A DNA stretch of 25,638 bases from the NCBI GenBank assembly GCA_001799195.1, contig MGSU01000243.1:1-25638 (forward strand). The letters are read 5' to 3'. The notes under the pieces are model-generated. The model did not search any database. It was not told the origin of the DNA and saw only the letters and a program-made list of their open reading frames with translations. Of this stretch, positions 16,986-18,865 are shown in pieces. The stretch comes from Deltaproteobacteria bacterium RIFOXYA12_FULL_61_11 (GTDB lineage: Bacteria; Bdellovibrionota_F; JAHFAK01; YA12-FULL-61-11). Every line of letters starts with the position of its first letter. The first letter of the stretch is position 1. Both the position numbers and the translations under genes were made by a program.

Positions 16986-17534
16986 TCAGAACAAAGTCGG
17001 ACCAACCTGCTCGTGGGGGGAGGGGATGATCTCTGTGCGGATCAGGAGTCCGGACTGGATGCGGGCGATCGCCGCCTCCATTGCAGCATGAACCTCATGC
17101 AAGAGACCGGTGAAGGTAAAATAGGCCTTGCCTCCGATCCCCATGGCGAGGCGGATCTCGATGAGGAGGATATCTGCGGCCTTGCAAGCGGCATCCGCAG
17201 CAGTCACCACCGCGGGTGAGGAATACGTTTCGACAATACCCACGGAGCGAATCTCAGGGATCTCGGAAGAAGCCACGATGGCGGGCAGCACGAGCGGATG
17301 GACATGCTCGACGATGACCGCATCGACCTGGGTGTAGCCGGCCCAATAACGCCCGGCCTCCATGGCTTCGTTGACCTCATCGACTCCACCGGCGACAATG
17401 ATGATGAATTTCCCGGGACATACCGGGTGGCTGCGCACGATCTCCACCGGTGCTTTCTTGACCATGGCATCGACGACTACCGTACCCCGGGCGATACTGT
17501 TGAGCTCGACCACGCCGATTGCTGGATGTTTCAT
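16986..17534 (-). CDS. pduT: PduT-like trimeric microcompartment shell protein (BMC-T, Fe-S)
   Basis: A bacterial microcompartment shell protein with two tandem BMC domains (about 4-86 and 96-165) in 182 residues, the BMC-T type that forms pseudohexameric trimers. It follows Salmonella PduT closely in pattern: the opening IGVVELNSIARG, the PVCPGKF loop, VGIVETYSSPA, MGIGGKAYFTFTG and the ending IIPSPHE. In PduT the Cys of CPGKF (Cys38) binds a [4Fe-4S] cluster at the trimer axis; here it is kept as Cys39, so a cluster that passes electrons through the shell is predicted. The start ATG overlaps the pduS stop (ATGA), with GAGGAG upstream. The frame extends 16 codons further up, but those codons lie in pduS and add an Arg-rich non-family tail. 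No other shell gene is present in the window. Confidence 0.93.
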   Translation of the reverse strand: MKHPAIGVVELNSIARGTVVVDAMVKKAPVEIVRSHPVCPGKFIIIVAGGVDEVNEAMEAGRYWAGYTQVDAVIVEHVHPLVLPAIVASSEIPEIRSVGIVETYSSPAVVTAADAACKAADILLIEIRLAMGIGGKAYFTFTGLLHEVHAAMEAAIARIQSGLLIRTEIIPSPHEQVGPTLF

Positions 17535-18865
17535 GCGCGCTCCTCGAGGACGATTCTGTCCCGATCGACCATCTTGACCCACCCGGAAATGCTGGCATGC
17601 AGCGCGGCTCCGAGCGCATCCTCGGGAATGACCGCCAGGATATCCCCTCGTTCCACCGTATCTCCGACCTTGACCACGGGTGTCGCCGGAACACCTACGT
17701 GTTGTTTCAAGGGTAGTTCGACTCGCCCAACCGACTTCACCTCGCCGCGGAAAGGCATCTCGACCTGGTAACGCGACAGGCCGGTGCGCTCGAGAACCCG
17801 GTTCTTGGGAATCTTGGTATAGGAATAGGCCTCCCGGACCCGAGTAGGTACCTCATGGTGTGTGGGTTTCACCTTCTTGGCAGCGAGTTCCTTCTTGAGG
17901 CCGGCGAAGACATTGCGCGGCGAGAGACCGAGAGGACAAGCCACGACCTCACACACCCCGCATTCACAGCACAGATAGGCTTGAGTCAACTCTTCGATCG
18001 GTTCTTCGCGCCGGTTGATAATGGCACGCATGACCTTATGCGGTTCGAGCCTATGCCCGAGTTGATAGCGGGGGCACAGCTCCGTGCAAGCAACACATTG
18101 ACAACAGATTGCGATAGTGCGCAACAGCTCGAGGTTCTGGGGCATCGTACGACGCAATAGATAGGGGTGCTGGGAAGGAAGGAAGAGCAAAGCCGAGGTA
18201 GTCTTACGGACCACTCCGTTCTCCGCTGTCGGGAGAGGCCTGCCCATCATCGGCCCCCCGTCGACGACCGTGATAGCATCAACGGTTCTTCCACCGGCCA
18301 AGCGTTCGACCTCGGCGATCGGCGTACCAATGGGTAGACGATACACTCCGGGTGCACCGACCTCACCGGCCACGGTCACGGTACGAGAGGTTACCGGAAT
18401 GCCACGACAAGCTTGGAAAACATTATAGAGGGTTTCAACATTGCTACTGATACACCCGACCTTCAGTGGGATACCCCCCTCGGGAATGATGCGGCCCGTG
18501 CATTCGCGGACCAAGATGAACTCATCGCCCGAGGGATAGAAATTCCCCAGCAATTTCAGTTCGAGGTCTGACAACCCTTGCAGCGCTGTCTTCATAGCTG
18601 CAATGGCTTCGTGGTAGACTTCTTTGGTCGCCACCACACCTCGCGCTGCTCCGCTGCTGCTCATCATGAGCCGCAGACCGCCGACGATCTCGTCGGCGTG
18701 GTGTTCGAGCAACCACTGATCGGAATGGATCAACGGCTCACATTCCGCACCGTTGGCGATCACAATCTCGGCCTTGCCTGCTGCCTTGACATGGGTCGGG
18801 AAACCCGCACCGCCGGCCCCGACAACTCCTGCTGCACGGATCAACTCATCAATGCGCCTGTCCAT
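17531..18865 (-). CDS. pduS: PduS-like flavin/Fe-S electron-transfer protein (RnfC-like)
   Basis: A 444-residue homologue of PduS, the cobalamin-reductase flavoprotein of propanediol microcompartments, related to RnfC and NuoF. The flavin/NADH-binding region begins with GVVGAGGAGFPTH (13-25) and ANGAECEPL. An SLBB-type domain covers about 160-205. Two ferredoxin-like clusters follow: C254-x2-C257-x2-C260-x3-C264-P and C299-x2-C302-x2-C305-x4-C310-P, the latter with one extra residue. A barrel-sandwich domain ends the protein (about 370-440, PLKQHVGVPATPVVKVGD and HASISG), as in PduS. I placed the start at ATG 18865; the frame is open for 235 further codons, but these cover the divergent lipoprotein gene on the other strand. 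The ribosome site is weak. The gene is coupled to pduT. Which substrate it serves cannot be told, since no cobalamin or diol enzyme is nearby. Confidence 0.93.
   Translation of the reverse strand: MDRRIDELIRAAGVVGAGGAGFPTHVKAAGKAEIVIANGAECEPLIHSDQWLLEHHADEIVGGLRLMMSSSGAARGVVATKEVYHEAIAAMKTALQGLSDLELKLLGNFYPSGDEFILVRECTGRIIPEGGIPLKVGCISSNVETLYNVFQACRGIPVTSRTVTVAGEVGAPGVYRLPIGTPIAEVERLAGGRTVDAITVVDGGPMMGRPLPTAENGVVRKTTSALLFLPSQHPYLLRRTMPQNLELLRTIAICCQCVACTELCPRYQLGHRLEPHKVMRAIINRREEPIEELTQAYLCCECGVCEVVACPLGLSPRNVFAGLKKELAAKKVKPTHHEVPTRVREAYSYTKIPKNRVLERTGLSRYQVEMPFRGEVKSVGRVELPLKQHVGVPATPVVKVGDTVERGDILAVIPEDALGAALHASISGWVKMVDRDRIVLEERA

What the first reader, a model, noticed from the sequence alone, without database searches (positions are those of the whole stretch)
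16986..18865. Orphan PduS-PduT electron conduit without a microcompartment operon
A complete PduS homologue (two four-Cys clusters, flavin loop, C-terminal barrel-sandwich) is translationally coupled to a BMC-T shell protein that keeps the Fe-S Cys39. In known Pdu loci these two sit among some twenty genes. Here the flanks are a small exported protein, a lipoprotein and a glycosyltransferase, with no aldehyde dehydrogenase, phosphotransacylase, signature enzyme or other shell gene. Either this is a satellite of a distant microcompartment locus, or the pair works as a stand-alone redox unit. The seen part is the two genes and their overlap; the second reading is inference.
Basis: partly seen in the sequence, partly recalled or inferred. 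Interest (0 to 1): 0.75.

Follow-up and report, generated by a model that had tools for sequence, protein, structure and literature searches.

The report
Displaced electron-exit module of a microcompartment
Two neighbouring genes for a pair of electron-carrying proteins, normally part of a protein-walled bacterial organelle, sit alone here, but the rest of the organelle's genes are found elsewhere in the same genome, so this is a displaced piece of a known kind of organelle rather than a new stand-alone machine.

Summary
In detail: a full PduS (17531-18865, -) overlaps by ATGA a PduT-type BMC-T (16986-17534, -) that keeps pore Cys39. No other microcompartment gene was found on the 32.8 kb contig. 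The stand-alone reading fails for this genome, because the draft assembly holds the rest of a microcompartment on other contigs. C184 carries a Haliangium-type (HO) shell operon: HO-5816-like BMC-T, HO-5815-like BMC-H, three BMC-P, an aldehyde dehydrogenase with an encapsulation-peptide-like N-terminus, and a second BMC-T. C95 carries EutB, EutC and EutL. A PduL phosphotransacylase is split over C153/C314 and a cobalamin adenosyltransferase is on C318. In Chloroflexota and Nitrospinota the same operon is intact with PduS-PduT between the dehydrogenase and BMC-P genes. In C184 PduS is missing from that position, and the BMC-T there has Ser in place of the cluster Cys (the only one of 93 examined). 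Isolated PduS-PduT pairs recur in about 15 other genomes of many phyla. All 15 have BMC-P genes and 14 have BMC-H genes elsewhere. Best reading: a satellite locus supplying the redox tile of a dispersed HO/ethanolamine microcompartment. One side lead: Neiella litorisoli has BMC-T-PduS-BMC-T with no detectable BMC-H, BMC-P or PduP.

The parts
17531..18865 (-). PduS homologue, 444 aa: FMN-binding 51K domain, SLBB, 4Fe-4S dicluster, RnfC-type barrel-sandwich
18074..18106 (-). first four-Cys [4Fe-4S] motif of PduS (C254, C257, C260, C264)
   Evidence: invariant columns; sequence
17936..17971 (-). second four-Cys [4Fe-4S] motif of PduS (C299, C302, C305, C310)
   Evidence: invariant columns; sequence
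17531..17534 (-). ATGA overlap of PduS stop and PduT start (translational coupling inferred)
16986..17534 (-). PduT-type BMC-T trimer shell protein, 182 aa, two BMC domains
17418..17420 (-). Cys39 codon, predicted ligand of the pore [4Fe-4S] cluster

Best explanation
The pair is a satellite locus of a dispersed metabolosome. PduS (NADH-oxidising FMN/2x[4Fe-4S] protein) docks on the inner face of PduT, and PduT carries a [4Fe-4S] cluster in its threefold pore. Together they move electrons between NADH or cob(II/I)alamin in the lumen and the cytosol. The shell they would join is the HO-type shell encoded on C184 (BMC-H, CcmP-like BMC-T, BMC-T, three BMC-P), which encloses an acylating aldehyde dehydrogenase. 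Ethanolamine ammonia-lyase EutBC with EutL (C95) supplies acetaldehyde, PduL recycles CoA, and a PduO-type adenosyltransferase (C318) makes the B12 cofactor that PduS would help keep reduced. The locus most likely arose when PduS-PduT left the operon position they hold in intact relatives. Shown: gene content, motifs, operon order in relatives, co-occurrence. Inferred: assembly of all parts into one shell, electron direction, the B12 role and the relocation event.
For: The genome has seven BMC-domain stretches and three BMC-P genes, most on C184, with AldDH in the same gene run. The C184 BMC-H and BMC-Tdp are closest among natural solved structures to Haliangium HO-5815 and HO-5816. C95 holds EutB, EutC and EutL. 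PduL is on C153/C314 and the adenosyltransferase on C318. Tetranucleotide usage of C184, C95, C153 and C276 matches the window (0.71-0.82) better than any of 18 other loci (at most 0.62). Intact loci L059 and L089 have BMC-Tdp, BMC-H, BMC-P, AldDH, PduS, PduT, BMC-P, BMC-P; C184 has the same order without PduS. Window PduT groups with the PduT of such loci (SH-aLRT 83). The Cys is kept in 92 of 93 PduT-like BMC-T, the exception being C184's. The genome has its own Rnf operon with RnfC on C276, so PduS is not its RnfC. 14 of 15 other genomes with isolated pairs have BMC-H and all have BMC-P. Biochemistry of PduS and its binding to PduT: PMC2982820, PMC6325248.
Against: The genome is an 87% complete draft of 342 contigs, so membership of C184 and C95 rests on binning plus composition. 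No shared promoter or regulator was shown. The PduL N-terminus lacks an obvious encapsulation peptide. EutA was not searched. The window's PduS branch is long and its place in the PduS tree is unresolved.
Confidence: 0.85

Rival explanations
1. Stand-alone redox unit: PduS and PduT work together outside any microcompartment, for example as a cytosolic or membrane-associated NADH-dependent cobalamin or ferredoxin reductase on small BMC-T assemblies.
For: No BMC neighbour on 32.8 kb. Neiella litorisoli (L104/G071) has BMC-T-PduS-BMC-T with no other BMC-domain gene, no EutN/CcmL gene and no PduP-type AldDH found, so a shell-less existence may be possible in principle.
Against: This genome encodes shell, vertex and core enzymes. 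14 of 15 other genomes with an isolated pair also have BMC-H and all 15 have BMC-P.
Confidence: 0.04
2. The pair belongs to a shell but serves mainly NAD+ regeneration by electron export, not cobalamin reduction (a variant of the best explanation, not exclusive with it).
For: PduS-PduT pairs occur in B12-independent loci such as GRM types (PMC6325248). Only 3 of 7 genomes searched have a PF01923 adenosyltransferase, so the pair does not depend on that enzyme family.
Against: This genome has the B12-dependent EutBC and a PduO-type adenosyltransferase.
Confidence: 0.4
3. Decaying remnant: the pair is left over after the C184 operon replaced PduT by a Cys-less BMC-T, and is no longer used.
For: C184 has its own BMC-T in the PduT position.
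Against: Both genes are open, overlap by ATGA, and keep all eight cluster Cys plus Cys39.
Confidence: 0.06
4. Contamination or mis-binning: the shell contigs C184 or C95 come from another organism.
For: Draft of 342 contigs with 1.23% contamination.
Against: Composition of the contigs agrees with the window, and the C184 operon is short of exactly the gene (PduS) found in the window.
Confidence: 0.06

Closest known systems
PduS-PduT of the Pdu metabolosome (Citrobacter/Salmonella)
   Same: Domain set, eight cluster Cys, flavin domain, PduT pore Cys, adjacency
   Different: About 40-42% identity to Salmonella and E. coli PduS; not in the shell operon; no diol dehydratase looked for or seen
HO-type microcompartment of Haliangium ochraceum and satellite 'EUT modules' (PMC8217296)
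   Same: BMC-P triplet, HO-5815-like BMC-H, HO-5816-like BMC-Tdp, AldDH with N-terminal peptide, EutBC+EutL satellite
   Different: A PduS-PduT satellite is not described in that paper's main text; C184 carries a Cys-less PduT-like BMC-T and a neighbouring phosphoketolase
Intact HO/SPU-like operons L059 (Chloroflexota), L089 (Nitrospinaceae)
   Same: Same order of shell genes and AldDH as C184
   Different: They keep PduS-PduT inside the operon
Carboxysome CcmK3/K4 satellite loci (PMC5853843, PMC8217296)
   Same: A shell tile encoded away from the main locus, thought to tune shell permeability
   Different: Those are pore-forming BMC-H without a redox partner enzyme

Membership tests
PduS | Complex1_51K + SLBB + Fer4 dicluster + RnfC_N barrel-sandwich in one ~49 kDa soluble protein | tested here: met
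PduS | two conserved tetracysteine motifs | tested here: met
PduS | NADH-dependent cobalamin reductase with FMN | not testable with these tools
   known for Citrobacter PduS (PMC2982820)
PduT (FeS BMC-T) | two tandem BMC domains and conserved pore Cys in C-P/S/A-G-K | tested here: met
TIGR02526 eut_PduT equivalog (NCBIfam) | curated score cut-off of 250.3 bits | tested here: not met
   133.8 bits; so called a PduT-type FeS BMC-T here, not a TIGR02526 equivalog
RnfC of an Rnf complex | encoded with RnfD/G/E/A | tested here: not met
   neighbours are not Rnf genes; the genome's RnfC lies in its own operon on C276; TIGR01945 cut-off not reached
BMC satellite locus (Axen 2014 / Sutter 2021) | shell genes distal from a main locus that has BMC-H and BMC-P in the same genome | tested here: met
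   definition in PMC4207490 and PMC8217296. With PduS present it is 'satellite-like' in Axen's wording
HO-type BMC (main locus on C184) | BMC-P triplet, HO-like BMC-Tdp, one BMC-H, AldDH with N-terminal encapsulation peptide | tested here: met
   no AldDH or shell-protein tree against the published types was made
EUT module | EutA/B/C and EutL | tested here: inconclusive
   EutB, EutC, EutL present on C95; EutA not searched

The most novel reading that the evidence does not exclude
The redox tile of this microcompartment has become a separately controlled plug-in. The shell operon carries a Cys-less (Ser) BMC-T in the PduT position, so shells can be built with or without an electron exit depending on whether the distant PduS-PduT unit is expressed, and separation of the redox unit from the shell operon has evolved repeatedly in unrelated phyla.
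Probability: 0.25. Interest if true: 0.5.

Novelty: new member of a known kind. Interest (0 to 1): 0.3.

Why it matters
It removes a false lead (a microcompartment-free PduS-PduT pair) and replaces it with a testable pattern. Isolated PduS-PduT satellites occur in many phyla, nearly always with a shell encoded elsewhere, so gene-neighbourhood surveys of microcompartments will miss their redox module. The one clear exception seen, Neiella litorisoli, is an isolate in which the stand-alone idea can be tested.

Tried and rejected
The stand-alone reading for this genome was rejected after the BMC-H/BMC-P search. The idea that PduS is the genome's RnfC was rejected because a separate Rnf operon exists. 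A first PduS tree used HMM instead of sequence coordinates to crop rows, which cut the window protein to half; it placed the window with Chloroflexota at 95/89. The corrected tree does not support that placement, and the first is disregarded. The upstream regions of PduS, the C184 operon and EutB were printed and no obvious shared operator was seen by eye; no formal motif test was made. Only one same-class genome is held, and it has neither a PduS match nor BMC genes, so close synteny could not be traced.

Full report
What is in the window. On the minus strand a 444-aa PduS homologue (18865-17531) is followed by a 182-aa PduT-type BMC-T (17534-16986), with the stop and start overlapping as ATGA. 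PduS has all four domains expected of the family and eight cluster cysteines that are invariant in an alignment with seven homologues of 39-44% identity. PduT keeps Cys39. Both genes therefore look intact. The neighbours are unrelated: a small exported-looking protein, a lipoprotein-like protein and a glycosyltransferase. No other microcompartment gene was found on the 32.8 kb contig.

The rest of the organelle. The window lies in a 4.64 Mb draft genome of 342 contigs, 87% complete. A search for PF00936 and PF03319 found seven BMC stretches and three EutN/CcmL genes. Contig C184 (8.4 kb) holds, in order, a CcmP-like BMC-Tdp, a BMC-H, a BMC-P, an acylating aldehyde dehydrogenase whose N-terminus (MDNSELIRDIVSRVLERIEH) resembles those of the dehydrogenases in other microcompartment loci, a BMC-T, two more BMC-P, a rhomboid protein and a phosphoketolase. 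The BMC-H and BMC-Tdp are closest among natural solved proteins to HO-5815 and HO-5816 of Haliangium ochraceum. Contig C95 holds EutB, EutC and EutL. A PduL phosphotransacylase is split over the ends of C153 and C314, and a PduO-type adenosyltransferase is on C318. An Rnf operon with its own RnfC is on C276. Tetranucleotide usage supports that C184, C95, C153 and C276 belong with the window; C314 is short and its value (0.53) is not decisive. The combination of an HO-type main locus with a EutBC/EutL satellite is described for HO, SPU3 and SPU6 types (PMC8217296).

Where the pair came from. In loci of Chloroflexota (L059) and Nitrospinaceae (L089) the order is BMC-Tdp, BMC-H, BMC-P, AldDH, PduS, PduT, BMC-P, BMC-P; Bdellovibrionales (L134), an Eisenbacterium (L116) and an Elusimicrobium (L125) have similar AldDH-PduS-PduT-BMC-P runs. 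C184 matches this order gene for gene except that PduS is absent and the BMC-T in the PduT position has Ser instead of the cluster Cys. Among 93 PduT-like BMC-T proteins, nearly all drawn from PduS-bearing loci, 92 have Cys at that column and the C184 protein is the exception. The window's PduT groups with the PduT of these intact loci with moderate support (SH-aLRT 83). The simplest history is that PduS-PduT moved out and a Cys-less paralogue holds the place. The origin of that paralogue is not resolved; it sits on a long branch.

How common this is. A scan of named genomes gave 80 PduS loci. Ten have PduT next door and no other shell gene or AldDH in the DNA held, which reaches up to 8 kb on each side but is short for some contigs; they include Latescibacterota, Ignavibacteriales, Opitutales, Acidobacteria and a MAG filed under Myxococcota. 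Of these 15 genomes with isolated pairs, 14 have a BMC-H gene elsewhere and all 15 have at least one BMC-P; the one without BMC-H is a draft from Synergistales. BMC-H here means a single-domain PF00936 match in a short frame. In G013, a single 3.29 Mb contig, the BMC genes are spread over five or more places. The PduS tree needs nine changes of the isolated state, at least seven forced by well-supported branches, although most isolated pairs fall in one clade of 18 rows to which the window does not belong. Displacement has thus happened repeatedly, and the window appears to be a separate case.

Mechanism. Citrobacter PduS binds FMN and two coupled [4Fe-4S] clusters, oxidises NADH, reduces cobalamin and binds PduT, and export of electrons through the PduT cluster has been proposed (PMC2982820; PMC6325248). 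With EutBC, an adenosyltransferase and an aldehyde dehydrogenase in the genome, the likely role here is to keep coenzyme B12 reduced and/or to vent electrons from NADH made in the lumen. This is inference from homology; neither assembly nor direction of electron flow was tested.

Verdict. The pair is a satellite locus of a dispersed HO/ethanolamine-type microcompartment. The stand-alone idea fails here. It stays open only for cases like Neiella litorisoli (L104), where a BMC-T, PduS and PduT lie among what look like polysaccharide-degradation genes and no BMC-H, BMC-P or PduP-type dehydrogenase was found; the only aldehyde dehydrogenase match was a 31% one in an 895-aa open frame, probably AdhE. 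A search of 58 relatives of that genome found only two further matches, at 40-41% identity, whose neighbourhoods were not examined.

Noticed in passing
L104:7393-9885 (Neiella litorisoli HB171785): BMC-T, PduS and PduT in a row in an isolate genome with no detectable BMC-H, BMC-P or PduP-type dehydrogenase; the best candidate seen for a microcompartment-free PduS/BMC-T unit.
   Followed up: partly
L011:5157-5726 (own contig C184): PduT-like BMC-T in the PduT position of the shell operon with Ser in place of the cluster Cys; the only such case among 93 proteins.
   Followed up: partly
L011:7052-8391 (own contig C184): A phosphoketolase gene follows the BMC-P genes on the same strand, after a rhomboid gene; it would make acetyl phosphate, the product also expected from PduL.
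   Followed up: no
L012:1028-2029 (own contig C95): A tyrosine recombinase (Phage_integrase plus Phage_int_SAM_4 domains), resembling integron integrases, lies directly upstream of EutB on the same strand.
   Followed up: no
G013 contig C1 (loci L040, L054, L055): In a single-contig 3.29 Mb genome the BMC genes are scattered: PduS-PduT near 92 kb, BMC-H near 586 and 875 kb, BMC-P near 906, 1162 and 2850 kb.
   Followed up: partly
L046:8684-10231 (own contig C276): RnfC of a separate Rnf operon, near 2-oxoacid:ferredoxin oxidoreductase genes; the PduS query reported an in-frame TGA within the open frame of this match.
   Followed up: no
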